A DNA stretch of 64,000 nucleotides from Amphirosellinia nigrospora (lineage: Eukaryota; Ascomycota; Sordariomycetes; Xylariales; Xylariaceae): contig SCHM01000003.1 in NCBI GenBank assembly GCA_004123355.1, positions 2,747,058 through 2,811,057 of the forward strand. The letters are read 5' to 3'. The position numbers and the translations under genes were made by a program. Of the stretch, positions 3,889 through 53,349 are shown piece after piece (the first letter of the stretch is position 1; each line of letters begins with the position of its first letter). The notes beneath the pieces are model-generated. The model was not told the DNA's origin. It worked only from the letters and a program-made list of their open reading frames with translations, and made no database searches.

Positions 3889-6589
3889 TAAAAATATTAA
3901 GTTTATAAAAACTATTTTATTTAATTTTATTATTAGTTTATTTAAAGTTTTTTTAATAAATATATTTTAATAAATTAAAAATTATAATATATTATAATAT
4001 ATTAATATATATATATATTATTTTAAAAAAAACTTTATTTATTTTAAATAATAAAAAATATATTATAAAAAATTAAATAATATATTAATTATATAGCTAT
4101 TATTAAATAATTAAAAATTATTTATTAATATTATTTTAAATTAAAATTATAAATTTATTTTAAATTTTTAAAAAAGTTTATAAAAAATATAAAAAACTAA
4201 ACTTTTTATAATTATTATTTATTATTTTTAAAAAAATAGTTTTTTAAATAAAAAAATTAAACTATAAAAATTATTATTTAATATTATAATTTTAAATTTT
4301 AAAAATAATTAAATTAATTTATTTTTATTTTTATAATAAAATTTTAATAATATTTATTTAAATTTTATTAAATTTTTATTTTATAAATAATTATTTAATT
4401 TTAATTTTTTAAACTTAATAATATATTAATAAAAATTAATATTATTAAATATAAAACTTATATTTTATATAAATATTTATATAAAAATATTAAATTAATT
4501 ATAAATTTTATTTTATTAAAAATTAAATAATATTATAACTAAAAATATAAACTAATAAAATTTAAAAAAAAAATAAAATATATTTATAGCTATATTATAA
4601 TTATTATTTTTTAAATAAGCTTTTTAAAAAGTTTTTTTAATAATATATTAATTTTTAAAAAATTAAAAATTAAATTAAATATTTTATTTATAAACTAAAT
4701 TTTTTTAAAACTTTTAAAATATATTTTATTATTTTTATTGTTTATTTATTTTTAAATAAAATAAAAAAAATTTTATTAATAAATTTTTTTTTAGTTTAAT
4801 TATTAATAATTAATTTAATTTTAAAAAAATAATAATTTTTTAAATAAAAACTATTTTATAATATTAATTAAACTATAATTATATTAGTTTTAATATTTAA
4901 TAAAATAAAAAAGCTATAGTTATAAAAATAATTAATAAAAATTAAAATAATAATTAAAAAATTTTAAAAATTTAATTAAAAAATATTAATTTTAAATAAA
5001 TAATAAACTTAAAATCGAAAAAAAAAAAAAAAACTATAGTTATTATAGTTTAACTTAATAAATAACTTTATAGTTATTTTTAAAAAATAAATTTCGCTAT
5101 AAAAATAGTTAAATTAAAATAATTTATATTAATAAATATTTTAATATTATATATTAGTTTAAATATAATATTAAAATTATTAAAAATAATAATAGTTTTT
5201 TTTTAAAGCTAATATTTACTATATTTTAATAAAAAAATAACTTTATAAAAGGTTTTTATTATAAAATAAAACTTATTTTATTAATAAATAAAGTTTAATT
5301 TTATAAATTAAATAAAAAAACTAAAAATTAAATAAATTTTTTACTTTTAATAAAAGTTTTATTTAATATTTGCTTTTTTTTTATTATATAATATAAACTT
5401 AATATTATATTATTTTAGTTAAGCTTACTATAAAGTTTATTTAAGTTATTTTTTTTAAATAATTAGCTTTTTTAATAGCTTTTTTTAAAATATATTTTTT
5501 AGTTTTAGTTTAATTATAAATAAAATAAAAAAATATTTAACTTTTTAAGTTCGATATTAATATTTATAATATATTTAATTATTTATATTAATTTTTTAAT
5601 ATTAAAATAATATAACTAATAATATTAAAAAATTAGCTTATTTTAAATTTTAAAAGTTATTTTTATTTTTTTTTTTAATAATAATTTAAATAATAATTTT
5701 TTAACGTTTTAATTTTATTTATTATATTTAGCGTAAATTTTTATAGCTTTTTTAAAGTTAATATATTATATAAAGCTTTTTTTTTTATATATTTATAAAA
5801 AAAACTACGTTATTAAATATTAAAATTTATAATAATTATTTTGCGGCTATTTTTTATAATATATTTATTTAAATAATTTTTTATTTTATATAATTATTTT
5901 TTTAAAAATATATTTAATAAAAATAATAAAATAAATAAAATATATTTTATGTTTATATTACGTTTATTTTTATTAAAAGTTTTAAAGTTTTTTATAATAG
6001 TGTTAATTTATTTTATTTATATAAGTTTATTTTTTATATAAACTATATATTTTTTATTTTTTTAGTTAGATTTATTATTAATTTTTTTTCGAAATTAGTT
6101 TTATATTATATATTTTTATATTCAACTTTATATTAAATAAAATATAACACTTATAAGCTAAAATATAATAATTTTTTAAAATATAAATATATTTTAAAGT
6201 ATTATTTTTTATATAATAATTTTAATATTTAGTCCGTTATTATTAATAATTTTAATATTTAAATATTTTTTTAACTTAAGTTATTTAAAATTATTATTAA
6301 AAGCAAAAATATAAAAATAAATATAATTAAAAGTATTATATATAGTTTTTTATTTAATAACCGGCTTAATAATCGGTTTTAAATTATTTTTAGATTTATT
6401 ATTATTAAAGCTAGCTTTTGTTTAATAAAAAAGTTTATTATTTTTCGATTAATAAATAGGCTTATTATAATAAATAAGTTTATAGTAGTTTTTTTTTTTA
6501 TAAAAAAGTTTATAATAATTTTTTTATAAATAAATCTACTATTATTTTTTTTTAGCTTAATATAATTATTAAAGCTAAAGCTATTTTTT

Positions 6590-6690
6590 AAGTTAAAATT
6601 TTTTAAGTTAAAGTTTTTTAAATTAAAGTTTTTAAATTAAAGTTTTTTAAATTAAAGTTTTTTAAATTAAAGTTTTTTAAGCTATAATAA
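6590..6690. repeat. AT-rich tandem repeat, about 17-18 bp unit
   Basis: About six consecutive near-identical units of the form AAATTAAAGTTTTTT lie here within the RIP desert. Unit length varies by a base or so. It looks like a minisatellite, or the mutated remnant of a repeat array inside a former transposon. Confidence 0.7.
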
Positions 6691-8479
6691 CTTTTTAGCT
6701 TAAAGTTATTTTATATAATATAGTTTTATTTATAATTAATAATATTATAGTTATTTAAAATAAAAAAAAATAAACTAAATATAAAAAAAAATAATATTTT
6801 ATAGTTATAAAAATTTATTAAACTTTATAAAATGTTTATATTTATATAAACAAAATAACTAAAATTATTTTTAAAGCTTATAAATAGTTTTTAATTTTTA
6901 ATAAGCTTATTATAAATATTATAAATTTTTAATCGTTTAAAGTTTTAATTTTAGTTATTATTATTTATTAAAATAATTTTTAGCAATATAACTTTATTAG
7001 TTATATTTAAAATATTTAAGCTTTTTTTTTTATTATAATTTTTTTTTTAAAGTTAAATTTAAAGTTCGATTTATAATTTTTGTTTTTATTATTACTTTTA
7101 TTATAACTTTTATTTTTATTAATAATATTATTATTAAATTTTTTTTTTATAATTTTTTAATTCGGGTTTTTTTTTATATAGTTTTTAAAGTTATTATTAA
7201 ATTTATTAATTAAATTTTCAATATAGTATTTTTTATGCTTTATAACTTTAATAGTAATATTATTATTATATTATTGTTTTATTTTTATTATAGCTATAAA
7301 TATTATAATTTATTAGTTTATATTTATTTATTTTTTTAGTTTTTATATTATTTTATATTTTTAAAAAATTTAAATATAAAAAATATAAGATTTTTTTATC
7401 GTATTTATAATTAATAATATTTTTATATATTTTTTTAATATATTTAGCTTATTATGCTATAAATTTATTAAAAATTTTAATATATATAACTTTTTTTAAT
7501 ACTTTTAATTAGGTTTAAAAAAGCTAGTTTTAACGTATTAATAATTATTTATATTAATATTAGTTTTTTATACGAACTAATAAAGTTTTTAAAATTATAT
7601 TTAATAGTTTTTATAATAAAATATAAATTATATTAATATATTAATTAATTTTAAGCTTTTTTTAAATAGTTTTTTATTAAGTTTTAGTTTAAATTTATAT
7701 TATTTTAGTTTTTAGTTTTATTTAAATAAAAGCTTTTCCGAGTTTTTTTATAATAAATAATATTTATATTTAATATAAATATTATTAAATTTTTTAAATC
7801 TAATAATAATAATAAATCTAATAAATCTAGGTTTAAATTAAAAATAAAAATAACTTTTTTTTTTTTTTTTGCTTTTAGATTTTTTTTTAGTAAAATTACG
7901 CTTCGGTTTTTTTTATTAAAATCGATCGATTTAAACTTTTTAAAAAACTTATTTATTTTTACTACTTTATTTAAAAAGTTTAATATTTTTTAATTATTTA
8001 AAATAATATTTTATTATTAAATACTTCGAATATAATATTATTAGCTAGATTAATTTAATTAACTAAATTAACTAAATTAATTAAAATTAACTTTTTATTT
8101 AATTTGTTTAACTTTTTTAAATTATCGATAATTTCGTTAAATTTATTTTTATAAGCTTTATTTTATATTTATAATTAATAAATTATTTTTCGATTTTTTT
8201 TTAAAGTTCTTAATAACTTTATTATATTTTTTTTTTCTAGTATAGCTTGTTATATATTTTAAAATTATATATTGTTATTTTTAGTTATTATTAAGTATTA
8301 ATTTATTAATTAGTTATTTTATTAAGTAAGTATTAATATTTTATTATTTTAATTTTTAAATTTATAATAATTTTTTTAAATTTTTTTTAGTTAATATTTA
8401 TTAATTTAAATTAATAATTAAAAATAGCTAAAATACATTAATTAAACGTTTTAAAAATCGATTAATCGTAAAAATACGC

Positions 8480-8695
8480 TAATTATTATATAAAAATAAT
8501 ATTAATACTAAAAAATAATATTAAATTAGTTAGTTTAATTAATATATTTATATTATTATATACTTTTAGTTTTTTAGTTATAAACTAAATAAGCTATTTT
8601 TTTACTAAATATTAAAAAATCTATTTAAATAGCTATAATAGCTTAATATTTTTTTTATCTTATATAAAAAAGGCTTTTTTTACGCGTGCTACGCA
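8480..8695 (+). repeat. Left arm of an inverted repeat pair
   Basis: The sequence here, including TACTTTTAGTTTTTTAGTTA and GGCTTTTTTTACGC, recurs in reverse complement at about 11,465-11,680 with good overall identity over about 200 bases. The pair encloses about 2.8 kb and looks like the terminal or subterminal inverted repeats of a RIP-mutated DNA element. The outer limits are blurred by mutation, and no target duplication could be fixed. Confidence 0.65.
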
Positions 8696-9029
8696 ATATT
8701 TAGCGCATATATAAAGCTATATACCATTATGCTATATAACCACCTAGGCACTAATAATTACGTAATTTATTACTAGGCTAATTAAGTATTAAATCTATAT
8801 ATTAATATTATATATATTAATTATAAAATAAAAAAAGTTATAATATTTTATATAAATAATTTTTTAATTATAAAACTTAATTTAAATTATTTAAAAATAT
8901 TGCTATAAAAATTAATAAAATAGTTTTAATAAACAATTTAAGCTAAACTAACTAGTTTTTAAACGTATAAATTATAAAAAATAAAATTAATAATAATATA
9001 AGCTTTAATTAAAAATAATATATAATTAA

Positions 9030-9846
9030 AATAACATACTATATAAACATCCTGGCCACATAAATATCCTGGCCATTTAAGCTTAACATTTTATTAAAAT
9101 TATAATAACTTTACGGAACTAAGCTTAATCGGGAAATAATTTATAGGGTTAATATATAACTATATTTAGTATATAAATATGATTTTTTTTAATTTTTTAC
9201 GCTAGCTTAATAAAGTTATAAACCCCGGTTTTTAAAATAAGCTAAAAAGAAAACTAAAATAAAATCCTAGTTAGTACTAGCGTATAATTTTATTTAAAAT
9301 TTCAAAAAAATAAAGTTAGATTTAGTACGTTTTTTATACTATATATTTTTTTCGAATTTTTTAAGCTAGGTTTAATATTTCTTTTTATTTTTTAAAGTAT
9401 AAAATATTATTATTTTTTATTATTTTTATTTTTTTTTATTTTTTTTTATTTTTTTTTTTTTATTGATTTTTTATACTTTAAAAAATAAAAAGAAATACTA
9501 AACCTAGCTTAAAAAATTCGAAAAAAATATATATAGTATAAAAAAACGTATCAAATCTAATTTTATTTTTTTGAAATAAAATTATACGCTAGTATTAACT
9601 AGGATTTTATTTTACCTTTTTTTTAGCTTACTTTAAAAACCGGGGTTTATAACCTTATTAAGCTAGCGTAAAAAATTAAAAAAATTATATTTATATACTA
9701 AATATAGTTATATATTAACCCTATAAATTATTTCCCGATTAAGCCTAGTTCCGTAAAGTTATTATAATTCTAATAAAATGCCAAGCTTAAATAGCTAGGA
9801 TACTTATGTGGCCAAGATGCTTGTGTGGTACGTTATTAAACTTTAT
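9030..9846. mobile_element. Fold-back palindrome, arms about 380 bp
   Basis: The left half reads outward-in from ATAACATAC at 9,030 and the right half is its reverse complement ending GTACGTTATT at 9,846. The arms share long matched blocks, for example TTACGGAACTA near 9,113, CGGGAAATAATTTATAGGGT near 9,130 and ACCCCGG near 9,222. The arms meet at a T-rich loop near 9,420-9,470. Both arms carry RIP-like changes, but different ones. This is a fold-back or palindromic MITE-like element, and it lies inside the wider inverted-repeat pair 8,480-11,680, so it is probably a nested insertion. Confidence 0.8.
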
Positions 9847-11464
9847 TAGTTTAAATTTAATATATAAATATTTTATATTTATAAATACTAAAAAGATAAT
9901 TTATATTATAAAATATAAAAAAAGCTTATTTTTAAAAATAAAATATTTAATTATATTTTTTATTTAATAAGTTAAGTTTTTTATTTAAATTATAAAGCTT
10001 AATATAAGCTTTATTATTTTTATTTAAATAAAATTTATAATAAATTTTTTTAATAAATATATTAAAAATATAAAATAATTAACTAAATATATAAAAAATA
10101 TTTTAAATATATAAATTAAATATAATAAACTAAAAAAAACTATTTATATAAAATTTATAATAATATAAGTTTATTTGTTATTATTAATATTATTTTAATA
10201 TTAAACTTATAAAATAATAAATTATTAATAAAATATATTATATTTTTAAATAGCGCGCTAATATTATAATATTTTAAATTATAATTAGTTATAGTAAAAA
10301 ACTTTATTAAAAATAAATATATTATAATAAATAAAACAATAAATAATTTAATATAAATAAAAAACTTTTTAAATAAACTTAAAATATTATTAAATAGTTT
10401 TATTATTTTTTTATATAATAATATAAAAGTTATAAATTAATTTAAATATATAATTATATTAAAATAAAAAAAATATATAAAAATAATATATTATTATATT
10501 AATTAAAAAATATAAGCTAATTATATTAAGCTAATATATATAAAATTAAAAAATAATCTAGCTAATAAATTAATTAAACTACTAAAAAAACTAAATATTA
10601 AAAGTTTTTATTTTTATTTAATTTATAAGTTAAAAAAATTAATAAAAAAAAAATAAAACTAAGCTTTTTTAAAACTTTATATAATAAATAATTAATAGCT
10701 TAAGCTTGTTTATTATTATTAAAAAAAGAAATTATTAATATATTAATTTTTTAAAAAATAATTAATTTAATATTTTAATATTTATAATATTTTAAAACTT
10801 ATAGATTTATATAACTAATTTAATTTATTTTATTATACGATTAATAAGCTTATTAAATATTAAAAAAAATAATATTTAGCTAAAAATAACTAGTATTATT
10901 TATTTATTTTTTAAATTTAAAAAGTTTTAAAAGTTTAAATCTAAAAAAAGTTTAAAATTTTAAAAAAATAGCGCTATTTAATTATTTATCTAATAAATAC
11001 TTAAATAAGTATAAAAAAACAATATTATTTTATTTTATATATTTTATAAAAAATAAAATATTTTAAAAGTTTTTTTTTAAACTTTAAAATAAAAAAAATT
11101 ATATTAAAATTATAATAATATAAAAACGTTTATAAATAATAATTTTAAACTAAATAAAAAAATAAATCTATTTTAAAATAAAATATATAGTTTATATATA
11201 TATATAAATATTATATTTAGTTTAATTAATTAATTATATATTTTTAGTTATAAAAAAAAGTTTAATTATAATATTAAATTAATTTAAAGTGTTTTATTAT
11301 TTTTTTTTAAAACTTATAATTATAATATTTATAACTAAAAAAAATATTAATATATAAATTTAATACTTAATTAGCTTAATAATAAATTATATAATTATTA
11401 ATATTTAAATAATTATATAGTATAATAATATATAGTTTATATATATATTAAATATATATAGTAT

Positions 11465-11680
11465 ACGTAAAAAAAGCCCTTTTTACGCGGGATAAAAAAA
11501 ATATTAACCTATTATAGCTACTTAGGCAAATTCTCTAGTATTTAATAAAAAATAACTTATTTAATTTATAACTAAAAAACTAAAAGTATATAATAACATA
11601 AATATATTAATTAAGCTAACTAACTTAGTATTACCCCTTAATATTAACATTATTTTCCACACTAATATAAAATAAAAGGG
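11465..11680 (-). repeat. Right arm of an inverted repeat pair
   Basis: This is the reverse-complement partner of 8,480-8,695. It is less mutated than the left arm and keeps CCC and GGG runs (for example ACCCCTTAA near 11,633), so it gives the better view of the parent sequence. Just outside it is a short GCTA tandem run (11,708-11,724). Confidence 0.65.
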
Positions 11681-11747
11681 TATTATAATACATTATAATA
11701 TTAATTAGCTAGCTAGCTAGCTAAGCATATAAGCGCGGATAATAAAC

Positions 11748-11917
<170 letters not shown>

Positions 11918-12956
11918 AAAATTACTTATTATTGTTATTATTATAGAGGGCAAAGGCATTATTATATATACAAAGTTGTAGTAAGATTAGCTTTTTTTTT
12001 TTAGCCTTTTAGAACTTTTTAAAAGCTAGGTTTTTTTTAATAAATAACTTCTAGCGAACTTTTATAAAATTCTAATAGTTTAATATTATTATATAAATAA
12101 TAATACGTTTAGTTTATATATTTAAAGCTTTATAAAAAGTACTTTTTTTATTAAATAATTATATATTTTCGAAATAATTAATTTTTAAAGCTTTATATAA
12201 CTAATTAATTATTATAATTTTTTTAATAATATTATAATTTATATAATAATATTTAGCTAAACTTTTATTAGTTTTTTTGTTTATAAAATAATAAAACTAA
12301 TATTAAACGATATAAATCGTTCTTAAGATTAACTAGCGTAAATTTTTTTTTTAATATTTTATTAAAATAAATAACTTAAAAGTTGTTTATTTTGGCTTAA
12401 ATATTAAGAAATTTGCTATTTTTTCGATTATTTTATTAAAATCCTTATAAAATAATAAATATATTAAGTTTAATATATATTAATAAATTTAGCATATAAA
12501 ATATATTTATAATAATTTATTAAAGCTTAAAATAACGTTTTATTTTAAAACTTTTTATATAAAACTAATATAACCTATTGTTTTTATTATATATTTTAAA
12601 GTTAGGGTTAACGTTATCGCCGAAAATCTTTTTAAGCAAAAACTTAAATTTCGAGTTTTTTTATTCGCTATAAAAAAATATTTTTAACGGACTTTTATAT
12701 TTAGCTATTAATATATAATTTATATAATTTATAGCTATATATATTATATTATTAGTAGTTAGTTTTGATTTGTTTAAACTACTAGGGCTATAATTTTTTT
12801 TTCTTTAATATTAATAATAATTCGTTTTTTGCTTTTGCTTTTATATTTATAACGTTTATTAGTTAAAACTTTTTTTTGTTTAGTTTAGTTTATATTAGTT
12901 TATATTTTGTTTTGTTTATTATATTTATAGTAATAACTTATAAGCTTAAGGGGCAA

Positions 12957-12982
12957 AGTTTTTTTTTTTTTTTTTTTTTTTT
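12957..12982 (+). repeat. Poly-T run
   Basis: An uninterrupted T run of just over 20 bases lies in the RIP desert. In opposite orientation it would read as a poly-A tail, but no recognisable LINE or SINE body precedes it. Confidence 0.8.
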
Positions 12983-13550
12983 ATTAGTTATAATAAAAGC
13001 TAGTTTAAAAATAAGCTATTTATTACTATATTAGCTTTAAATTATTAAGTTTATATATAAGTTATATATATATAATATTAAAAAGTTTATTAGCTAATTA
13101 TTATTTATAGCTATTATTATTTGCGTATAAAGCTTTAAGTTTAAAAAGCTAGGATTAAAGTACTTTATAATAAAATAAAATAAGATAAAATAAAACAAGA
13201 TATAGTAAATAAAATACAATATATATAAATAAATATTAAAAAATAAAGCGTAATAATATAAAATAAAAAATAATTAATTATTTATTATAATAATTTAACG
13301 GCAGTAAGCGGATTAGCGGTAGTAAAAGTATAAATAACTATAAGACTTATAAAAAAAAAAAAAAAACTTAAAAATTTTAAAAAGCGGATTATTCTATTAA
13401 ACTTAAACGTTTATTAAAAATCTAAACGTTTATTAGCTTTAAACGTTTAATTAGCTTTAAACGTTTAAAATTATAAACGTTTTTTTTTATAGCGTTTACT
13501 CGGTTTAAATCATTTATATATAGTTAACAAAAAAAACTATTAATCAACGG

Positions 13551-39050: not shown

Positions 39051-41060
39051 CCCGGGTAGGGTAGTCCATAGGGACAAAGAGGACAAAAGTCCAAGTGGCG
39101 CCTGGCAAATCCCTTGCCAAGGGATTTTAAGTAGAACTCACAGTGCTTAATATATCATAGTTTATTTATAATTAAATTTTACTTCGTACGGAATATTTTT
39201 TATTAATTTATTTTATTATTTAGGTAAAAAAATATTTATATAATTATATTTATTTTTATTTAATCGGAATTAAAAATTTTATAAATATCGTACTTTTAAT
39301 ACTTTTAAACGCTAGATTTATTAATCGTACCGCTTAAAAGCTAATAATAAACTTTTTGTACTTTTTTTTATTTTTTTTATAAAACTATTTATTATTTAAA
39401 TTATTAATAATAAACGTATAGCTTTAATTAGTATTATTAATAAAACTACTAGTTTTATTTTAGTTATTATTATTTTTTTTATTATTTAAGTTTAGATTAA
39501 ATATTTAGCTTTAGTTTTTTTTTTTAATAAAAAGTTTCGGCTTAATAATAAAAAACTAAAATTATAAAAATAATCTATTATAATAGCGTAATTAATTATT
39601 ATAGCAATATAGCTAATTATATAGTAAGTAAACTATAATTCTTACTATAGTTAGTTTATTTATAATTAATATTAATTTATTTAATAGCTAATAGTTATAG
39701 CAATATAATAAAAAAATAGCTTTGTTTATTTATTATTATTAATAGTTATTTATATTATATATTTTTAAAAAATATAGCTTATTAAACGTTATAAATATAA
39801 ATAAAAAAACTATTAATATATAAAAGCTAATAAACAATTATAATTTATTTTTAATTAATAAAAACCTAGCGTATATATAATAATTTAACGGCCGGAAAAA
39901 CTATAACTATTTTTAAAAAGCTATATAATATTAAACCGCTAATTTTAAAAAAAATATAACTAAAGCCTATTATTATTAATAAAAAAATATATTTTATACG
40001 TATTACTATTTAATATTTAATTAATCTTTTATAAAAAATAACTATTTAATAAATAATTAGCTTATTATAAAAATATATAAAAAAAGTCATAAATATTTAA
40101 ATAAAAACGTTTATTATAAATACTAGCTATATATTTAAATTAATATATAATTAAAAATTTATAATTTTATTATTAGCTTAAAAATATTAGCTATTATATA
40201 TAAAGCTATAAAATTATAAGTTTAATATATTAATTAATTATATGCCTTATTTTACGCTAATAAATAAACTTCCGTTAAAAAAACTATAACTAAATTAGCA
40301 ATAAATTATAAAGCATAAAATAAAATAATATACATACGCTATAATATATAATGCTTATTTAAGCGCAATAATATTAGTAAATAAAATAGCTAAACATAAA
40401 AAATTAAAAGCGTAAAGGTTAGCAGCGTAAAAATTAAAAAAAATTAAAAAAAAAATATAAACTATAAGTTAAAAAATACTTAAATAAATATATATATTTA
40501 AGTTATAACTATTTATAACTATAGTTATTATAGCTATAGCTAATAAATATAATAATTATAATAATAGTAATAATAATATTATAATAGCAATAGTAATAAT
40601 AATAGTATATAATTATACGAGCTATTTAATATTAAATAAAAAAAAAAAAAAAAATTATACTTTTTTATTAAATATATACTTATATACTTTTTTTTATACT
40701 TTTTTAAATAATAAATTATTTTTAGCTATTATATTTAAAAATATTTTTATTATAATTATTATATAATAAAAGTTTTTTAAATAATATATTTTTTAAAACT
40801 CCTTTTTTTTTCTTTTTTTATAAAATTTTTTTTTAATATAAAAATAGCTATAAAAATAAACTAAATATAAATATTATACGCTAATATATATTTTTTATAT
40901 TTTATAAATCTTAAAAATATATATTACTAAATAATTATTATATAATATATAGCTAAAAACTTTTTTATTTTTAATATTTTTAATATTTTTAATTTAACGT
41001 TTTAAATTTTATATAAAATATATATTTAAACTATTATTAATTTATAAAAACTATTTTTAT
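39051..41060 (+). repeat. Left terminal inverted repeat arm
   Basis: Blocks such as AGTTTATTTATAATTAAATTTT (39,159), CTTTTAAACG (39,302), AAAGCTAATAATAA (39,337) and TAAACCGCTAATT (39,933) recur in reverse complement in the right arm in the same order. Alignment fades after about 41,060. Confidence 0.8.
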
Positions 41061-44000
41061 TATATTATAAATTTAACTTTAAACTAAAAACATATAATTT
41101 CTTTTAATTTATTTATTTATAGTTCGTATAAACTTTTTTTATAAACTATTTAATATTCGTACGTAATATAAAAATAATAATAATAATTATTTAATAATAA
41201 TCTATTTTTTAATTAATATTATTAATATAAGATTTTTAAAATAACGCTATAAATATAAATAACTATAATATTTATATATAACTAATATTATATAGCTATA
41301 ATTTTTTACTAATTTATATTCTTTTAGCGTATAATTAAAAGTTATAAGTTAAGTTTCTTAGTTTATACGTTAAAAATTACTATATAATTTAATAATAATA
41401 TTAAAAAAAAAAAATAATAGCCCATTTATTTTTTCGTACGGTTAAATATATAAAATAATTCTTAAATATTATATATTAATCTTAATAGCTAATAATATAA
41501 CTTATAGCAAAATTAATAGTTAATATTTTTATAATATAAAATATAATATATAAAAATATAAAATAAATCTATTATTATAAAAAATTATAAGCTAGTTCGA
41601 AAGCTTTTATTATTAATTAATAAATTTTAAAAAAAAATTAATATTTTTATATAAACAAACAAATAAAATAAAATACTTTATAATATTTTGTTCGTTTATA
41701 TTAAATATAATATTAAAATTATATAGCTTAAAAATAAAAAATAAATTATTAAATATTAAAGTTTAAAGCTATAATATTATATAAAAAATATACTAAATTA
41801 AAAAAAAAAAATAAAAATAATTGGGTATTAGTTTATTATTAATAAGCTTTTTTATTTAATAAGCATATAATAAAAAATCTATAATATTATAAATTTTTTT
41901 ATAGTTTATTTCGTATAATTATTATTTTTTAAGTTTTAATAATATTTTATATTAGTTACTTTTTTATAATTTAAGCTAATATTATAATTAAATTTAATAA
42001 TAAATAATAAAAAGTTATATATAATAATAAGTTTATAATTTTTTTAGTTTATATTATTTTAGATCGTTAATTATTTATATATTTTAGCGTTATTTTTAAG
42101 CTTAAAATATTATATAAAATATTTAACTTATTTTTATTTTTATTTTAAAGCTTTAAATTAAATATTTTATTTAAATTTTTTTAATTAAATAATAATAATA
42201 GTATAATATACATAAACTTTATAAAAAAGCTATATAATTATTTAGCGTTAATTAAAAATAATTCAATAATAGCTAAAGTTAAAACGTTATATAAATATAA
42301 TAAAAAAATAATAATAATAAATCTTAAAATATTAAACTTAAGTTAAAAAATAGCTTAAAAAGTTTAACTAACTAATTAATTATAAATAAAGTTATTTATT
42401 TTTATTAGCTAAAAAAAAATATAAATAATTTATAAAGTATTTATTATATTTATTATATAAATAAAAATTAATATTTATAAGCATATTTTATATAAAATAT
42501 TTAAAGAGTTTTATTTAAAAATTAAGCTTTATTATTATTAGTAATAATATCGATAAAAAAAAGAATTTATTATATATAGATTTAACTAAGTTTTTTTTAT
42601 TAATAGCTATAATAAACTTAAATATTAAGGTATATATATATATAATATTAATAGCTATTCGCGTTATATAATATAATATTATATTAGTTATTATAGAAAT
42701 ATAGCTATTATAACTTTAAAGCAATATTTTATATTATATAAAAATTTAAATATATTTTTTATATAATTTATACTAACCGTAAAAAAAAAATGCTTTTATT
42801 AGTAATAGCTTATTAGCTATTTGTATAATATAGATATACTAATAAAAATAGATTATTAATTAAATTTAAGGATTGTTTTTTATATAAACGAAATATAAAT
42901 AATATTTATATTAAACATTAATAATTATAATTATTAAAAACTTGTTTAATGTAATAAATTGTAAGTAAATATTTTTATATTTAAGATTATAATTAATGTA
43001 TGAAGACTATATTCGAATAAATAAAATAATATCGATTATAAATTTATAAAAAGCTTATATTAAAAATTGCTTTTTTAGCAGTTTATATACTTATTATCCG
43101 AATTAAGGTTATATTTTTTATATAATAATAAAATATACTATATTTAAGCTTAACTAAATAAAGCTAATTCTATTAAAAAACGCCTATATAAAAATTACTT
43201 TATTTTAAATCTAGCTATAGCTTTTTAATAAAAGCTATTAGTTAATATTAATATTTTATCCAAACTTAATAAGTTTATTAATAATGTTAATATTAATGTT
43301 TATTTGCTTAAGCTTACTATATAATAATATAAAGCATAATTATAAGCTTTTAGTTTTAATTGTATAAAAAAAAATAACTATAAATAGCTATTTATACAAT
43401 ATTATATATAGCTTTATATAGCAGTTTAATTATATTTAAAACAAAATAATAAAGCAAGCTTATTTTAGCTTATTAAGCTTATAACTAATAAATTAAACAA
43501 ATTATAGCAATAGTTTATTACCTTTAAAAGCTTCGAGTTTATTTAAAGTTTAAAAACAGCTATATAAATATAAATAAAACTAAAAAATAACTAAACTTTA
43601 AAATTATATATTTAACAATAGTACGTTATATAATATAAATTTAAATAATCTTGTTTAAAAACTAAGCTTAGCGTTTATTAAAAGCTTTAAAAGCTTTATA
43701 AAAACTATAAGCAAAACTATTATATATAAAGGCAAACTATAATATTTAATAAACAAATAGCTATTTATAATTACTTTAATAATCTAATAGTATAATATAA
43801 TATTCTAACCTTTATATAAATAAATACTTATTATTTTTAGATTATTTAAACTTTATTTTTATATAATATATATAAAAATAAAAATTATATAATAAAAATA
43901 TAAAAAATATTTATTAATATTAAAAAATATTAAAGTTTTAAGTTTAATTTTTAACTAAAGCAACAAGTTTTTTTTTATTTTTTTTTTATAAAAATATTAT

Positions 44001-45479
44001 TATACGAAAAAAAAAACTATATTTTTTTTAAATACTTTTATTTTTTACTATAATACTATATAAAACAACAAGCTTTTTATTAAATAATTAATTTATTAAG
44101 TTTTTTATACGTATAGCTTCTTTTAAAACTAACTATATTTCTTTAATAAACAAATTAAAAGCTTTTTCTTTAGTCCTAGTTTTTATACTACTATATAATA
44201 TTATAAGCGAATATATAAGCGTATAATATTAATTATCCACTTTTTTTTTAAATCCTATTTTATTTTAAAAAGATTTTTATATCAGAGAACTTTTATTTTA
44301 TTTTATTTAATATAAAAAAAGTAAACTTTAGCCAATAAATTAATAAAAATAAAAATTAAAAAATAAAAGCTTTTTATTTAACTATAAGTTTAAACAACTT
44401 TTTAATTTTTAAAGTTTAAAATTTAGCTTTAATAATTAAACTATTTAAACTAAGTTCTATATACCGCTCGATTTTTAAATTTTTTAATAAATAATATATA
44501 TATTTAAAATTTAAAAAATTTCGATTAATTACCCGGCGTAAATAATAACCTATTCTATAACTAGCGAATAAAAATAACATAAATAATTTTATATAATAGC
44601 TTTATAAAAGTATTCTTTCTATCGATTTTATAAAAAAACTTAATAAAAAAACTAATAATTTAAAGTTATAAAATTTATATACCCGTACAAAGTTCTTAAA
44701 TCTAAACCGGTCTTATTAATCCTAAGCGTTAATAATTAGTCCAACTTTATATATAGTTTTATAAAAACTAATAATTTATTTTAAATCTTTAATATATAAA
44801 AACATAAAAATTAAATCGTTATAGTTAATATTTATTTATTAGTACTAATTTTAATTATAAACTTTAAATATTAAAAAAGTTTAACGTTTAATTAAATAGC
44901 TTTAATAAATTTATTTTTAATTTAATTTAATATTTAATAGTATCAATAAAAAATAAAGCTTAAAATAAAGCTAAAATTATTATATTCGGTATTTTATATA
45001 ACGGCGTTTTTTTTTAATATATAATATTAATAAAAATAATATAAAATAAAAAAAAATATTATATATTTATCGGCATTTATATAAAAGTTAGCTAGTTTAA
45101 TTTATTATTTAAGTATAAAAACTAAACGTTTAATAATAATAGTATTATTATTATCGTTAATAATTAAAGCGTTAACTTTTTAGCTTTCCGTATAAAAAAT
45201 AAAAAAATATTATAATAAAAGCAAAAACTAAAGCTTTATGTTTTTATAGCTATATAAAAAGCTTAAAAAGCTTAAAAAAAAAATAAATATTTGCTATTTT
45301 AATTATTAAAAATAAATAATTAATTTTTATATAATAAATAAATATAAAAAAAAAATAATATAAAAAAATTTTTATCGGCTATTATATTAAAAATTATATA
45401 TAGCTACTATATAAAAATTAAATACGCTATATTATATAAGGTTAATATAAAATTATTTACTTTTATTTTAATTTTATAG

Positions 45480-47444
45480 CCGAAAAAAATAATTTTTATA
45501 AATTAATAATAGTTTAAATATATATTTTGTACGAAGTTTAAAACGTTAGGTTAAAAATATTAAAAAATATTAAAAATATAAAAAAATTTTTAGTTATATA
45601 TTATATAGCAAATTGTTTAGCAGTATATATTTCTTAAGATTTATAAAATATAAAAAATATATATTAGCGTAATATTTATATTCGGTCCGTTTATAGCTAT
45701 TTTATATTAAAAAAAAATTTTTATAAAAAAAAAAAAAAAGAAAAAGTTTTAAAAATATACTACTTAGAAAACTTTTATTATATAACAACTATAATAAAAA
45801 TATTTTTAAACATAATAGCTAAAAAATAATTTATTATTTAAAAAAGTATAAAAAAGTATATAAATACATACTTAGTAAAAAAGTACGATTTTTTTTTTTT
45901 TTTTTATTTAATATTAAATAGCTCGTACGGCTATATATTATTATTACTACTATTGCTATTATAATATTACTACTACTACCACTATAACTATTATACTTAT
46001 TAGCTATAGCTATAATAGCTGTAATATAAATAGCTATAACTATAATATATATAATAATTTAATTTTTTTTAATTTATAGTTTTATTTTATTTTATTTTTG
46101 TTTGCCGCTAATTTTTACGCTTTTAATCTTTTATATCCGGCTATTTTATTTATTAATATTACTACGCTCAAATATATACTATATATTATAGCGTACGTAT
46201 ATTATTTTATTCTTTGTTTTATAATTTATTGCTAATTTAGTTATAATCCTTTTAATAAAAGCTTATTTACTAGTGCGTAGCTAGGCGCGTAACTAAGCGC
46301 ATACTTAATTAATATATTAAACCTATAATCTTGCAATTTTTTATATAATAGTTAATATTCTTTAGGCCGATAATAAAATTATAAATCTTTAATTATATAA
46401 TAATCTAAATATATAGCTAGTATTTATAATAAACGCTTTTATTTATATACGCTTACGATTTTTTTTATATATTTTTATAATAGTAGCTAATTATTTATTA
46501 AGCAGTTATTTATTGCAAAAAAATTTAAATAGTTATATATATAAAATACGTTTTATTATTAATAATAATTAAGTTTTAATTATATTTTTTTTAGAATTAG
46601 CGGTTTAATATTATATAGCTTTTTAGCGAATAATTATAGTTTTTTAGCTATTAAACTATTATATATACGCTAAGTTTTTATTAATTAAAAATAAGCTATA
46701 ATTATATACTAGTTTTTTATATTTATTTATATTTATAGCGTTTAATAAGCTATATTTTACTAAAAATATATAATATAAATAACTGCTAATAAAAACGGAC
46801 AAATAAAGCTATTCTTTTATTATATTGCTATAATTATCGGCTATTAAGCAAACTAAATATAATTATAATAGACTAATTACGGTAAAAATTATAGTTTATT
46901 TGCTATATAATTAATTATACTGCTATAATAAATTATTTTATAATTTTAGCTCCTTTTATTATTATAAAGCTAAACTTATTATTAAAAAAAAAGATTAAAG
47001 CTAAATATTTAATTTAAACTTAAATAATAAAAATAATAATAATAACTAAAATAAGGCTAATAGTTTTATTAATAATATTAATTAAAAGCGTACGTTTATT
47101 ATTAAAAACTTAAATAATAAATAATTTTATAAAAATAATAAAAAAAAGTACGAAAAACTTATTATTAGCTTTTAAATAGCGAAAATAATAAATAAAGCGT
47201 TTAAAAGTGCTAAAAATAAATATTTATAAAATTTCTAGCTTTAATTAAATAAAAATAGCAAATAATTATACCCTAAAATAAAAATAAATTAATAAACAAA
47301 TACTCCGTATAAAATAAAATTTAATTATAAATAAACTATAATATATTAAACACTATAAGTTCCACCTAAAATCCCTTAGCAAAGAAGTACCAGCTGGCCC
47401 ATTTGGACTTTTGTCCTCTTAGTCCCTACGGACCACCGTACCGG
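45480..47444 (-). repeat. Right terminal inverted repeat arm
   Basis: This is the reverse complement of the left arm. It retains slightly more G and C than the left arm in places (for example near 46,260-46,320), so the two arms have decayed independently. The tip ends 72 bases before the RTR1 start codon. Confidence 0.8.
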
Positions 47445-47516
47445 GCTCTGACAGGTTTTCTTTCTTGCGTAGGATGGGCATCCAATTGCACTGGGTTCAT
47501 AGGCACGAGACGCAAC

Positions 47517-48409
47517 ATGTCAAAAGAAATCAGCAAGCCTAAGAGCATTCTCAAAAACAAAGGCACCCCCACGCCACCTTCCACCCAACAGAATGCGCCT
47601 GATCCCCGCGAGGTCGCCATCAAGCATGCCGAATCATCCACTCACGCCGCGAGATCGAAGACCAGATTCCGATTCTATGATCGAGTTATCTAAGTTCCCC
47701 ATTAGCCGCGACGCACCTTACGACGCCTCCCACCCGCGCCAGCTGACGCCGAGTCCTTCAAGAATTTCGTCCGCCTATACCAGCCTAGCGATTATGACGA
47801 TCTCATCGAGGAGCGCAACGCCAACGGACTATGTGGATACACGCTGTGCCCGAAGAAACGATCGCGCGTCACCAGCGGCGGCACCTTCAAGCTGGTGAAC
47901 TTCGGTCGCAAGGACTTCAACATTGTCCCAAGCCGGAGCTAGAGAAGTGGTGCTCCCAGAAGTGCGCCAAGCGGGCCATGTATGTCAAGGTGCAGCTGAA
48001 TTGAGACGGCCGCATGGGAACGCGCGGGCATTCCTTCAATACAACTCGAGCTATTCGAGAAGAGCACGGCCCCGCGGTTAGCGACTCTACCGACCAACTG
48101 GCAAAGGACGTCGAGAATATGAGAATCGAGGCGCAGGAGAAGACTGCTCAAAATGCGCGCGACCTCGCTCTGGAGAGGGGGACACCACTGAGAACGGGAA
48201 AATACCAAAACGCATCAAATTAGCTATCAGGGAAAAAGCCGGTCAAAGCACCTACAGCGCCATCATTAGACCCAGCCAGTCAAGGCCATTTGGTAACAGA
48301 GGGCTACAGGACAACTTTCGACCCGATTTCGAAGACGGTGAGCCAAGAGGCTGAGTTTACAGGTGAAGCAGAGAAGAGGCCGAATGAACCACCTTCAGAA
48401 GCGTTATAA
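47517..48409 (+). CDS. RTR1: Rtr1/RPAP2 family RNA polymerase II CTD phosphatase
   Basis: The protein begins MSKEISKPKSILKNKGTPT. The family zinc-binding core follows: FKNFVRLYQPSDYDDLIEER, then GLCGYTLCPKK, FKLVNFGRKDFNIVPKPELE, and KWCSQKCAKRAMYVKVQLNE with an AAWERAG motif. The Cys pairs CGYTLC and CSQKC would bind zinc. Rtr1/RPAP2 proteins act on the polymerase II C-terminal domain (Ser5 phosphate) and help import the polymerase. The tail is low-complexity and ends at TAA 48,407-48,409, giving just under 300 aa without introns, the usual fungal size. Several one-base frame changes occur, including one extra T near 48,001 and losses in short runs, but the amino-acid match resumes each time. 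The start codon lies only about 72 bases from the right tip of the 8.4-kb element, so the 5' UTR or core promoter must be partly element sequence or very short. Confidence 0.88.
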
Positions 48410-48844
48410 AATAGAGCTGCTATGCATCACGAGGAGCTAGCCCTGTCGTTAAAAGATACCCCACAAAGACCACATGACTTTGCTTGCTAGCTCACGCGGA
48501 ATCATCCGTCTGTCCTTAAACAGCATTTCATATTGACGTGTGCTTGCAAGTAGTATACCTACCTATTGTCAAAGCGTCGATCAAAGGGCAGTTGGGCTTA
48601 ATGACGTGTACTGACGCCGTAGTCCATGCAGACATATCGTCACGCTGCTACGTGGGGAACGAAACTTGGCCATCAACCATTACCTCAGGCGTAAGCCCGA
48701 GACTCAGGGACACCTTGTTCAGAAATCTCTCGTTTTGTTTTCGTAACCTAGTGTGGGTACTACCATCCATTTAGACGCCGTGAAGTCATGATGAGCCCAA
48801 TGTAACCCCCGAACCCTTTAACCATCCATTCCTGCAATGTACAT
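48410..48844. other. Intergenic region between convergent RTR1 and RPS17
   Basis: Both genes end here. Only short frames are present. Nothing else is recognised. Confidence 0.6.
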
Positions 48845-49523
48845 TTATCGAGGGGGCGGTCGCCGAATCGGCGGGGTCCGCTCGGCGGTCTGTTTGCTGG
48901 ACAACAGGCACAACGTTGACGGGGATGGTATCGAACTATGGAGGGTGAGTATTAAGCCAATTCCAGCGAGTAGAGCGAGTGTCTATACGTACGCCCAAGT
49001 GCTTAAGTAGGTCCTTGGTCTCGCCATCGACATCGAGCTGGCCGCTCTCGGTGGTTCTGGGTGAAGTCGAGAGCCGATACCTCGGGAACGTACTGTCCTT
49101 ACGTTCTCTCTCCTCTTCTTGCAACTTGAAACTGATACCACGAACTGGGCCGCGCTGGATACGCTTCATCCTATGCGTAACAAGAATGGTGAGTGATCGC
49201 ACGGGGTAATGATGCAGACGGGACAATTTACAAGTGGGTGACATAGCCAGCAATCTTGTTTCGCAGTCTACGCGAAGAGATGATGGCAATCTCGTCACAG
49301 ACGCGCTTGTTGGTATCGAAGTCCAGGGTCAGGCGAGGCTGTCAAGGTTAGTTCGCTGGAAAGTGCACGTAAGGCACCTGGATAGCCTCACATAGAATCG
49401 CTCGCTAGCTTGAAGTCAGTCATCGCCAATTTTGGGTGAGCCTTATAAGGCCAAGAAAATAGCAAAAACTCACATAATGCCCTTGGCGGACTTCTTGACT
49501 GTCTTTGTGCGAACGCGACCCAT
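48845..49523 (-). CDS. RPS17: 40S ribosomal protein eS17
   Basis: The start is at 49,523 with the family N-terminus [16 protein letters not shown]. Five exons are evident: 49,474-49,523; a 13-base micro-exon 49,392-49,404 (IERFY with flanking bases); 49,232-49,338 ([18 protein letters not shown], then [10 protein letters not shown]); 48,993-49,170 ([20 protein letters not shown], then [12 protein letters not shown]); and 48,845-48,935 ([14 protein letters not shown]). The introns are 53-69 bases with GT-AG borders and matching phases. Two single-base losses lie in exon 4 (near 49,086 and 49,048), and one frame choice in the last exon leaves the final 15 residues uncertain. The protein belongs to the small ribosomal subunit. 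Its mRNA should be strongly expressed; the upstream region has no unusual element. Confidence 0.93.
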
Positions 49524-50101
49524 GTTGACGATTTAGCGGATGATTTGGTGGTTGGATGGGTTGACCGAGAGCGTTGTGGCAATGAGACCAAGGAAAGATA
49601 TCGCAGGACGAGAATAGCAATTGGAGTTCAGATATCGAGAATCTTGTGTGGGGGAGATTTTTCGGTAAAATTAATTGCGGGGTCCTAGGGCAGCTGCGTG
49701 AAGGAGATAGGTACTTCGGATTAGGCTAGCCCAACCTTATCTGACAGCTGATAGGTATTGACTGACAGCTGGTCATACTGTACTCATTCTTCCCCTACTA
49801 CCTAATGTTCCTATTCGCTGTGGGGTCTACAAACGGACGCTAGGGTATAAGGGCATATTGCTGGGGATCTGGACCCACCTTCTTCCCCTACACTTTACCT
49901 AGTCACAGCTAACTAGGGCACTCGCTGGTCGAGTCGTAATACACACTCATTTACCCCTCTGTGTGTTCATCACCGTCCTACCTTGGGGTACCTCTTAGTA
50001 GGTAGGTAACGCTCAACCGGGTTATACTTTTGGAGAGCTGGATAGTTGCACTAATATTTGATCATATGCGAGGAACAGCGGTATTGGTTGTATTTTATTT
50101 G
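49524..50101. promoter_or_regulatory. RPS17 upstream / MRP51 downstream region
   Basis: It holds several short TACCTA, GGTACC and TAGGTAGGTA motifs (for example near 49,990-50,008) that are common in promoters of this window. No gene is seen. Confidence 0.45.
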
Positions 50102-51597
50102 TTACAAATCCAATAATACAGCTGACCCGGTCGTCACCAGGGTATATCGACCTATGCTAGGGGCTATAATGTACACATTGGAGCGTCGAGATACCCTACA
50201 AGTTGTCCCGACCCAGGCCATAGCTTGTCCTGCTGCCCCGTATATAACTCCCTTGCGAGGGCCGGGCGTTATCTCAGGAGATATTCTGGCTGCCGAGCCA
50301 TCCTGTATAGAGGTCGAATATGCATCCATTTTCATGCCGTCCTCTCCCAGTAACTCCTTTACTACTAATTCCGCTTCTGCGTTCCCGGGATCCGACATGG
50401 TGAGAAGGACTTTACCACCAGAATCAATAGTGGCAGAATCGAGCTGATAGTAGAGCTTTGCGCCACCGCGTTTCTCAAGCTCTAGGCGTGAGAGCGCATT
50501 TGTTCTTATATTAGTTCCTATGCCACGCCCAAGGAGTGGCTGATCAACAAGGCGGCCCGCCACAAAACCGGCAACACCAAGGACCGGTTCGTGGACACCT
50601 GTACCAATATTTCTAGGCTTTAGCACCCGGGCCTTGACCACGAAATGGTATTTCTGAGGCCGTAGATAGGGTGATTGTCTACATAGTTGGATGTTCGCAA
50701 GTATGATAAACCGGCGGAAGGATGTGTGATTGGTGGCCCTTTCTCACCATATGGGTTCTGCTTATCAAACTGCTGAGCTCGGCCGAGCTTCATGGTAGCG
50801 ATGTACCGGCTCTCGGTGGTCAGAGGTGCGAGGTCGAGAAAGCTGCTAACGAATCGGAACAGGTGTAGGCGATCCTGGCGAATATCCCTCAAGTAGGCCA
50901 TAAACTGAGCGTCTGTGATGTCGTCGGGCGTCACTTCCGGCGGTGCAGGCAATTGATCTCGTATCGCCTGGTTTCTTTGGTCTTTTGTGAGGTCCTTGGC
51001 GTATATTTCCTTTAGATAAGCTCGGAACTCGGTTCGTCTAGTCCGCGCGTTCTTTTCCAGCCATTCTTTGAATTCGCCATCGGTCATGGCAGCAAGCCAA
51101 GGGCCCTTAAACTTCCATCGCTTATTCGCAGTGGCCTCGGCTTCCTTGGGATCCAGCGCTGTGATATCTCCGTCCTCCTCGAACACAGACTTTAGGAACC
51201 GTGCAGAATTATCACCGCCGCCGTCACGCGGTACCGGTACTGACATGGGCAGGTTGAGCTCCTGGAATTTCCTAAGGGTTATTGTGTGATCGGATGCCGA
51301 CTGAAAATCAGTGACATGCTCTATGGAGTCCATCTGCCGTACGCGCACGAGTGGGAATGTTTGCTTTGTGGTTGTCTTTAGGGGTAGAGGTCTCTTGAGC
51401 CCCCAGTCACCGTTGGCACGAGAGGTCGCCGGGGTGGTGATGGTCAAGTGGGTTGGGAAGGGAGCCGTCGCCGTCGCAGAGTGGTGTTTTGTCGCAGACG
51501 AATAATCGCCCGGAGGTGCAGGTATCGGGTTCGGCATTGAGAACATGCGAGATGATCTGAGCAGCGCGGCCCCGGGAGACACGCTCCGAGCCGCCAT
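50102..51597 (-). CDS. MRP51: Mitochondrial ribosomal small-subunit protein Mrp51 (bS1m)
   Basis: The start at 51,597 gives MAARSVSPGAALLRSSRMFS, a presequence-like N-terminus. The hallmark block follows: TAPFPTHLTITTPATSRANG, DWGLKRPLPLKTTTKQTFPL, RVRQMDSIEHVTDFQSASDH. Further on are WKFKGPWLAAMTDGEFKEWL and FMAYLRDIRQDR--LF-FVSSFLDLAPL. After NPYGEKGPPITHPSAGLSYL the frame steps once at a GGCC run near 50,656, and the protein continues YHFVVKARVLKPRNIG and ITPGPRKGVIYGAAGQAMAW. The total is near 500 aa, typical of filamentous fungi. The protein sits at the mRNA exit side of the mitochondrial small subunit and supports translation of mitochondrial mRNAs. It is intronless. A lone end of the RIP element family begins about 120 bases upstream of its start. 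Confidence 0.9.
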
Positions 51598-52375
51598 TGT
51601 GGAATTTGAGGCCGTAACCCGACGCTCAAGAGTGGACTTGAACTGGGAGTATGCTTCTCTAGAACGAGAGCTTCAGAGTGACAATTTTCGACAAGAGTCA
51701 ATTGGTTGGGCAAGTGGGGACTAAGAGGACAAAAGTTGGAGTGACACCTAGCAGATTCTTTGCTAAAGGATTTTAGGTAGAATTTATAGTGCTTAAAGTA
51801 TTATTAAGTATATATATAGTTTTTTTTTGTATGTAAAAGTTTACGCGGGGCTAGGGTAATAGAGCTCTATGTACGTAGGTTTATTAAGGTTTATATATAT
51901 GTTTGTAGGTTTATAAAAGTTTGCATGTATCTTTGTAGGTATATGTTTGTGGCACCTGTGTGGCACCCAGGTAATGGGCGCCACAGTGAATGGTTGCCTG
52001 GCAAGCAAGTCTTTGTACAGCCCAGTGCCGTACTTAGGTACCTAATGTCAGGGTAGTGCTTGCACCGCCACAGGCACTGAGTGGACATGCAGTAGGCAAG
52101 CCACCCTCGTCCCAGTGCTGCGCTACCTACCTAAACTGAACTGTCATCCAATCGAAAGTTGAGTATGCCACACACCGTCCTATTCTTACAGTCGTACTCG
52201 CCAGGTGGATTGTGGTGTGGACGGGAAACCATGACTTAGGACTTAGAGCCTTAGGCAATCATTCTACTTGTATTCCGGCCGAATCCTTGATGTAGTAGCC
52301 AGCCTTCTTCAACGAATATCCCGACTTCGCTACCCCATTCCCCCCTGTCTATAGTCCGGTTACGCAGAGCACAAG
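51598..52375. promoter_or_regulatory. MRP51/NECAP divergent promoter region
   Basis: This is a divergent intergenic region holding the lone transposon end at about 51,718. A block rich in GGCACC/GGTGCC and TACCTA motifs lies at about 51,950-52,140. No gene is supported. Confidence 0.5.
51718..51850 (+). mobile_element. Lone end of the 8.4-kb element family
   Basis: The sequence from GGGACTAAGAGGACAAAAGT through GGATTTTAGGTAGAATTTAT to AGTGCTTAA matches the tips of both arms of the 39,051-47,444 element in order and spacing over about 110 bases. It then diverges. No partner end is visible downstream or upstream in the window. It is a truncated or non-autonomous fossil copy. It carries TG-to-TA and C-to-T type differences from the other tips. 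Confidence 0.8.
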
Positions 52376-53349
52376 ATGGAGTCGATTGACCCAGCCACGG
52401 GCCAGCCTTTGCCATCAGACGCCATTCAGCGTGTGTTATTCGTCGTCGGGACCGTCCATGTCTACAATATCCCACCCATGACGCCGGGGAGGGCCACGTC
52501 GCGGCCACGGTGAGTGCCTACTAAGTAGATTCTAGCCATCTGCACATGTATTGGGTTAGACTCTTCCAGTGTTGTCTGTTTGGTATTGGCCTTTCATATT
52601 CCTACAACATAAGGAAAGGAAAGGCCCACTGCGCTTCTCTGCTTCTCTGCTTCTCTGCCGCAGGAGACCACCGAAGAAGGCAGTAGTCACTGACTCACTA
52701 CGCACAGTGGACCGCCGAGGGAAACCAGCGGCAGATCTTTACTGCGCGGCTCCGAATACTCGAGACAGCCATCCCAGAGGCTTCTGGCGAGGAGAAAGTA
52801 AAGGCCGACATTGTGTTGGAAGACCAGCGCAATGGCCAGTTATTTGCCGCAGCCCCGTACACGGCCGCAGCAGTTGTTGAGTCCGCCTCTGATAGTTCGC
52901 GGTTCTTCGCCCTGCGCGTCCAGGATGACGCAGGCAGGAAAGCGACACTGGGCATCGGCTTTGAAGAGAGAAGTGACGCATTCGATTTTGGTGTGTCTTT
53001 ACAGGAAGCTCAGAAGACGCTCGATTGGGCGCAGGGTGGTCCACCAGGCAAAAAGCCTGCGGTGGAGAGAAAGGATAGCGTTGAGAAGCGCGACCTCAGC
53101 CTCAAAGAGGGAGAGACTATCACGGTCAACCTGCCTGCAAGGTTTGGCAGGCGCAAGCCCCAGACTGGAGAAGAAGTATCTAGCGCCAGTCTCTCGTCTT
53201 TCTCATTAAGCCCACCTCCGTCTGCGTCGTCTAAAGGAGGAGGCATACTTCCCCCGCCACCGCCACCACCATCGACAAGCTCAAGAGCGAAGCGACTATC
53301 CGCAGCGAATTTAGGCTTTGACGATGGAAAATTTGGCGAATTTGCCTAA
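52376..53349 (+). CDS. NECAP family adaptin-ear-binding coat-associated protein
   Basis: Exon 1 (52,376-52,509) encodes MESIDPATGQPLPSDAIQRV and the PH-like start VGTVHVYNIPPMTPG. A 198-base intron follows (52,510-52,707). Exon 2 resumes WTAEGNQRQIFTARLRILET, then LEDQRNGQLFAAAPYTA, SSRFFALRVQDDAGRKATLG and IGFEERSDAFDFGVSLQEAQ, all hallmark NECAP sequences. The tail is Pro-rich (PPPPPPPPST) and ends in a short acidic motif with FDDGKFGEFA, which resembles adaptor-ear-binding peptides. NECAP acts in clathrin-coated vesicle formation with AP-2/AP-1. One G is missing from a G run just before the donor (near 52,489); restoring it gives EGHVAAT, as in relatives. The length is about 258 aa, as in the family. 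Confidence 0.92.

What the first reader, a model, noticed from the sequence alone, without database searches (positions are those of the whole stretch)
39051..51850. One transposon family sits in two neighbouring divergent promoters
The 8.4-kb element (39,051-47,444) separates BBC1 and RTR1, which are divergent. The lone end at 51,718 separates MRP51 and NECAP, also divergent. Both share the tip GGGACWAAGAGGACAAAAGT and the following 90 bases in order. Two independent insertions of one family into divergent promoters within 13 kb suggest targeting to open, nucleosome-free promoter DNA, or that insertions elsewhere are lost.
Basis: partly seen in the sequence, partly recalled or inferred. Interest (0 to 1): 0.7.

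Follow-up and report, generated by a model that had tools for sequence, protein, structure and literature searches.

The report
RIP-wrecked transposon family in divergent promoters
A fungal DNA transposon family, big copies and small derivatives alike, sits mostly in the short gaps between two genes that are read away from each other, which suggests that it chooses promoter DNA when it jumps.

Summary
Window 39,057-47,440 is an 8,384-bp DNA transposon with about 2.1-kb terminal inverted repeats and 5-bp duplications (CCGGG), 76 bp from the RTR1 start codon and 1,133 bp from BBC1's. The lone end (51,717-51,947) is a chimeric miniature derivative (MITE), 119 bp from the MRP51 start. The core search found five copies; their 5-bp duplications are exact in four and off by one base in one, and about three quarters of G:C sites in their arms carry RIP-type changes. 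Ten further places hold MITEs or single ends. At 15 sites with usable host neighbours, 11 of 12 resolved on both sides are divergent pairs, 26 of 27 neighbours face the copy with their 5' end, and the median distance to a start is 268 bp. Flanks compared at 12 sites are unrelated, so the window pair is not a duplication. Un-mutated arms on C9 encode DUF3716. The targeting idea gains genome-wide support, but targeting and selective loss cannot be separated, gene calls are home-made, no independent random baseline was obtained, and the transposase is unidentified.

The parts
39052..39056 (.). left 5-bp target site duplication CCGGG
39057..47440 (+). 8,384-bp RIP-mutated DNA transposon, L tip at the left, R tip at the right
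   Evidence: dinucleotides CA 0.31 and TG 0.21 of expectation
39057..41230 (+). left terminal inverted repeat arm (about 2.17 kb, 81% identical to the right arm)
45327..47440 (-). right terminal inverted repeat arm
39261..40034 (-). approximate counterpart of the DUF3716 reading frame of the un-mutated C9 arm, read towards the tip; no such open frame here
   Evidence: coordinates carried over by hand from L015 through the purine/pyrimidine alignment; domain; frame signal
46463..47236 (+). approximate mirror counterpart in the right arm
   Evidence: by symmetry; frame signal
41231..45326 (.). core between the arms; a 701-bp piece of it was found at five places in the genome; coding content not recognised
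47441..47445 (.). right 5-bp target site duplication CCGGG
51717..51947 (+). R-end half of a MITE of the same family; outermost bases and other end missing
51948..52018 (+). second repeat fused to the MITE half; same fusion in L023 and L024
36158..37923 (-). 5' part of the BBC1-like gene, start codon at 37,923
47517..48173 (+). RTR1/RPAP2 gene, start 47,517; frame split by small indels in this assembly
50623..51597 (-). MRP51 (mitochondrial ribosomal protein), start 51,597
52376..53349 (+). NECAP-type gene (DUF1681), start 52,376

Best explanation
This is one family of terminal-inverted-repeat DNA transposons with 5-bp target duplications. It has long copies (8.2-8.6 kb where not interrupted, with 2.1-kb inverted arms whose un-mutated relatives on C9 each carry a DUF3716 gene) and MITEs that were probably moved in trans through the shared tips. 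The family inserts mostly into the upstream region of genes, and so into the gap between divergent genes. Shown: structure, duplications, position bias by predicted genes, RIP-type damage, unrelated flanks. Inferred: that a transposase made by the core (or a partner such as the DUF3716 protein) picks accessible promoter DNA, perhaps through a promoter-bound host factor and a preference for G+C-rich 5-mers; that the copies then met RIP, which destroyed the interior and largely spared the outer 50-100 bp next to unique DNA.
For: 5-bp TSDs at 5 of 5 big copies: 4 exact (CCGGG, GGTGG, CGCCC, ACCTA), 1 with one mismatch (CCACC/CTACC); one two-ended MITE has AGGGT/AGGGA. 23 of 30 TSD bases are G or C when one version is taken where the two differ (22 with the other), P 0.003 at 50% for 23. 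Core piece at five places, E 1.6e-201 or better, 85-100% identity; next hit E 1.8e-14 (40 of 50 candidates scored). Sites: 11 of 12 divergent (P 8e-5 if 35% of intergenic DNA is divergent, 1e-3 if 45%), 26 of 27 neighbours 5'-facing (P 2e-7 at 0.5, 1.4e-4 at 0.65), median start distance 268 bp. The unedited automatic calls gave 10 divergent of 11 pairs, and 9 of 9 at two stricter settings. Neighbours include conserved genes: RTR1, MRP51, NECAP, Nop25, CUX1_N, ribosomal S11, Tim44, DAP3, RRS1 (below Pfam's cut-off), MRP-L46, DUF167. DUF3716 in both C9 arms, E 1.2e-11 and 2.2e-12.
Against: One of the five big copies (C5:4,160,532) lies between two genes in tandem, 691 bp upstream of a predicted start. 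Sites are few and neighbours are predictions; for C1, C4 and C5b they were completed by hand after the automatic pass. L025 is 2.3 kb from its neighbour; L019 and L025 have one usable side; the right neighbour of L024 is uncertain. No transposase was recognised; the core gave no coding signal above shuffles. DUF3716 is not private to the family: 4 of its 6 hits in this genome lie elsewhere. No chromatin data.
Confidence: 0.68

Rival explanations
1. Insertion is random and the pattern is what survives: insertions in genes, introns and short tandem or convergent gaps are lost, and long divergent gaps remain.
For: None of the 15 usable sites lies inside a gene called by the HMM. Selection on positions is well known in fungi; PMC9970103 (passages seen) leaves both readings open for Zymoseptoria.
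Against: Convergent gaps should be the safest place, yet 0 of 12 resolved sites are convergent, while convergent gaps made up 23 of about 52 kb of insertion-free intergenic DNA in the same loci (a sample biased against divergent gaps). An insertion 76 bp or 119 bp from the start of a conserved gene is not obviously harmless.
Confidence: 0.2
2. The pattern is an artefact of few sites, home-made gene calls and a search that sees mainly copies with intact tips, which are those next to unique DNA.
For: 15 usable sites; genome-search runs its counts lower bounds and skips common words; several neighbours were completed by hand.
Against: Pfam families confirm the strand of many neighbours. The core search, which needs no tip, found the same five copies and then only weak hits, E 1.8e-14 or worse.
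Confidence: 0.1
3. The two window copies are one insertion plus a segmental duplication of its end.
For: They are 4.3 kb apart and share the tip.
Against: Flanks are unrelated; the lone copy belongs to the MITE subfamily, and its best-scoring relatives are on C1 and C6.
Confidence: 0.02

Closest known systems
Tf1 LTR retrotransposon of fission yeast (targeting only)
   Same: Intergenic, close to Pol II gene starts; PMC7175516 (passages) gives a 100-400 bp upstream window, 83% of reference Tf1/Tf2 insertions nearer the 5' end, and 93% of new insertions between tandem or divergent genes.
   Different: Tf1 is an LTR retrotransposon; this is a TIR element, and the bias here is mostly divergent.
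Ginger2/TDD-4 and TDD-5 DNA transposons
   Same: TDD-4 and TDD-5 make 5-bp TSDs (PMC2836005, passages).
   Different: Ginger2 termini are TGTNR and TIRs about 50-180 bp; here the termini are TAGGG/TACGG and the arms 2.1 kb.
Polinton/Maverick elements
   Same: Long TIRs and short TSDs of 5-6 bp (recalled).
   Different: Usually larger, with integrase and polymerase genes (recalled); none was seen here, but the core was not readable.
Gene-near fungal MITEs, e.g. of Zymoseptoria tritici
   Same: Small, little RIP, near genes (PMC9970103, part of the abstract and passages).
   Different: The passages that I saw describe no divergent-gap bias; here long RIP-hit copies share the same niche.

Membership tests
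TIR (class II) DNA transposon | terminal inverted repeats with a fixed-length TSD | tested here: met
   arms 81% identical over 2.2 kb; 5-bp TSD at 5 of 5 big copies, one with a mismatch
TIR (class II) DNA transposon | recognisable transposase | tested here: inconclusive
   core too RIP-mutated; frame test not above shuffles
Tc1/mariner | TA target duplication (recalled) | tested here: not met
   5-bp TSD outside the TA of the tips
hAT or Mutator | 8-bp (hAT) or about 8-11-bp (Mutator) TSD (recalled) | tested here: not met
   5-bp TSD
Ginger2/TDD | TGTNR termini (PMC2836005) | tested here: not met
   termini TAGGG/TACGG
Transib | 5-bp TSD and CACWRTG-like termini (recalled) | tested here: not met
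   TSD length fits, termini do not
Polinton/Maverick | 5-6-bp TSD, long TIRs, integrase and polymerase genes (recalled) | tested here: inconclusive
   TSD and TIR lengths do not exclude it; genes not readable, and total length is smaller than usual
MITE (small copies) | short, no coding capacity, tips shared with a large element, two ends and TSD | tested here: met
   C5:4,236,934-4,237,392 has both tips and AGGGT/AGGGA; C5:6,814,033-6,814,413 has two degraded ends; the other copies looked at are one-ended
RIP target | C-to-T on both strands, CpA most affected | tested here: met
   CA 92% (1887 of 2043), CC 63%, CG 71%, CT 71% against the un-mutated C9 arm
Tf1-like promoter targeting | insertions concentrated within about 500 bp of Pol II gene starts | tested here: met
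   13 of 15 sites within 500 bp of a predicted start; fresh insertions not available

The most novel reading that the evidence does not exclude
A DNA transposon that reads divergent promoters of housekeeping genes as its landing site through a dedicated targeting protein, the DUF3716 product, encoded twice, once in each inverted arm, so that arms and gene are inherited as one unit.
Probability: 0.12. Interest if true: 0.75.

Novelty: new variant of a known kind. Interest (0 to 1): 0.5.

Why it matters
Promoter-seeking insertion is well known for retrotransposons such as Tf1. A TIR DNA transposon with the same habit in a RIP-active fungus would place 8 kb of mutated, probably silenced DNA within 76 bp of a conserved gene's start. 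That makes a clean natural test of how such genes stay expressed, and of whether promoter choice lets an element pass to offspring in spite of RIP.

Tried and rejected
Segmental duplication: rejected for the window pair by the flank comparison. A TA target site: rejected once several copies were lined up; the 5-bp duplications lie outside the TA. A giant 64-kb or 76-kb element: the C4 copy has matching 5-bp duplications and a core hit (C4:10,768,037) lies inside, so I read it as an 8-kb element with a large insert, of which I saw about 14 of 64 kb. For C9, with arms at 114,310 and 190,200, the right tip is degraded and the 5-mers do not match; the stretches that I saw between the ends (about 30 of 76 kb) hold other mobile genes (DDE_3, DUF3435) and no core. 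C9 was dropped from the counts: its left neighbour is a frame with weak gag-type hits below Pfam's cut-offs. Transposase: not found; the frame test of the core was inconclusive, and its reversed control also scored high. DUF3716 against solved structures: best E 0.38. Papers: DUF3716 with transpos- 0 papers, DUF3716 alone 0; MITE with divergent promoter 0; in the listings of the other searches (titles and abstract starts, not every paper listed) I recognised no description of this family. Random baseline: two control stretches gave three gene calls in all, too few.
Full report
What is there. The window lies at C5:2,747,058-2,811,057 of a 48.1-Mb assembly in 11 contigs, a filamentous ascomycete to judge from its proteins and RIP (inference; the window's MRP51 matches bS1m of entry 6yw5, E 4.5e-88). 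The block 39,057-47,440 has 9-18% G+C per kb in gene-rich DNA of about 50%. Its two ends are inverted repeats of about 2.17 kb, 81% identical, with tips TAGGGTAGTCCATAGGGAC... (L) and TACGGTGGTCCGTAGGGAC... (R). CCGGG flanks it on both sides.

Copies. A 701-bp piece of the core hits five places at E 1.6e-201 or better (85-100% identity); the next of 67 matches has E 1.8e-14 (72% over 190 bases), and weaker, shorter ones, some of higher identity, follow (40 of 50 candidates scored, so a lower bound). Each of the five has an L and an R end: C5 (window), C5:4,160,532-4,168,719 (C5b), C1:12,050,094-12,058,703, C6:7,162,660-7,178,264 (interrupted) and C4:10,758,725-10,822,708 (interrupted). Their 5-bp duplications are CCGGG, CCACC/CTACC, GGTGG, CGCCC and ACCTA. 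Ten further places carry MITE-type or single ends: the window copy and L017-L025. L017 has both tips with AGGGT/AGGGA and L018 two degraded ends; the others are one-ended in the stretches that I looked at. In the window, L023 and L024 the MITE half is fused at about the same point to a second repeat that also occurs alone in L025, so that chimera probably multiplied.

RIP. Contig C9 holds two un-mutated arms. Against the C9 left arm, the ten arms of the five big copies show C-to-T or G-to-A at 60-86% of G:C sites per 50-bp bin from position 150 on, but 9% in positions 1-50, 39% in 51-100 and 52% in 101-150. Rates by context, position 100 onwards, are CA 92%, CC 63%, CG 71%, CT 71%. Transversions, which RIP does not make, are 0.6-2.2% between same-end arms of the window copy and the C5b, C6 and C1 copies, 4-7% for the C4 copy (whose arm alignment probably runs into its inserted DNA), 6.3% between the L and R arms of the window copy, and 2.3% between the window L arm and the C9 left arm. 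The copies were thus closely alike when RIP hit them.

Gene content. Both C9 arms hold an open frame, stop to stop, of 257 and 233 codons with DUF3716 (PF12511, E 1.2e-11 and 2.2e-12), read towards the tip. In a purine/pyrimidine alphabet the window arm is 96% identical to the C9 arm over 1.7 kb, and the highest frame scores of the element lie at that place in both arms, on the expected strands (15.0 and 15.7); 20 block shuffles peaked at 6.4-12.5, while the reversed element reached 13.6, so this signal is supportive, not proof. The core gave at most 9.8. The family PF12511 has 6 hits in the genome, 4 of them outside these arms, so the domain is not private to the element. The transposase is not identified.

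Sites. Genes were called with a codon-usage HMM that tolerates frameshifts, trained on these same loci, because conserved genes here are split by small indels (RTR1 in several frames; DAP3 in two), probably assembly errors. The automatic pass gave 10 divergent pairs of 11 that enclose a copy (the eleventh, C1, called tandem), and 9 of 9 at two stricter settings; C9 was left out, C4 lies on two unjoined stretches, and C5b, L019 and L025 had no called pair. Insertion-free pairs: 3 divergent, 16 tandem, 14 convergent of 33 (9.3, 20.1 and 23.2 kb). This contrast exaggerates, since the neighbour of a divergent gap cannot be divergent. Adding the divergent gaps that hold copies (about 14 kb, summed by hand) makes divergent DNA about 35% of intergenic length, the null used below. 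By hand I then corrected C1 (a DUF167 gene, makes it divergent), and added C4 (Nop25 / a frame that resembles BIG1 by recall) and C5b (Fungal_trans gene upstream, a plus-strand frame without Pfam hit downstream: tandem).

Result. Of 16 sites, C9 was dropped. Of the other 15, 12 have both neighbours resolved (L019 and L025 have one usable side; the right side of L024, 3.2 kb away, is uncertain) and 11 are divergent; with L024 it is 12 of 13. Neighbours facing the copy with their 5' end: 26 of 27 (27 of 28 with L024). P is 8e-5 for 11 of 12 at 0.35 and 1e-3 at 0.45; for 26 of 27 it is 2e-7 at 0.5 and 1.4e-4 at 0.65. Sites with a Pfam family on both sides: SH3 (BBC1)/RTR1, MRP51/NECAP, ribosomal S11/Tim44, DAP3/RRS1, HAD_SAK_1/DUF167; the RRS1 hit scored 21.9 bits against a cut-off of 25. 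Names such as CASP, CWC25, DLIC and bL9m are recalled; the frames I recalled as CWC25, DLIC and bL9m had no Pfam hit at the thresholds used.

Reading. The bias is of the kind reported for Tf1 (PMC7175516, passages). Because none of the 12 resolved sites is convergent, where an insertion should hurt least, I favour choice at insertion over survival, but this is inference. G+C-rich duplications (22 or 23 of 30 bases) suggest some sequence preference. RIP largely spares the outer 50-100 bp, where the homologous DNA ends against unique DNA; whether the neighbouring promoters keep their chromatin state is open.

Known or new. The tips, 5-bp duplications and 2.1-kb gene-bearing arms do not fit Tc1/mariner, hAT, Mutator, Ginger2 or Transib by the features tested, several of which are recalled. 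Polinton/Maverick is not excluded. With the transposase unread the superfamily stays open. I rate it a new variant of a known kind.

Noticed in passing
L036:1141-2652 (C9, between the two un-mutated arms): DUF3435 frames (PF11917, E 1.3e-39 and 4.5e-11; recalled as the captain-type recombinase of Starship elements).
   Followed up: partly
window 47,517-48,173; 52,376-52,900; L021:3304-4864: Conserved genes are split over frames by small indels, which looks like an unpolished assembly.
   Followed up: partly
window 51,948-52,018; L023, L024, L025: A repeat of about 70-110 bp beginning GTGGCACC, fused to the MITE half at three places; 13 short hits to its first 43 bases, 8 of them on C9 and one of them the copy that stands alone in L025.
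   Followed up: partly
arms of the five big copies: RIP-type change is not confined to CpA: CC, CG and CT sites are changed at 63-71%.
   Followed up: yes
window 1-13,500: Very AT-rich block, 3-17% G+C per kb over the first 13 kb, not examined.
   Followed up: no
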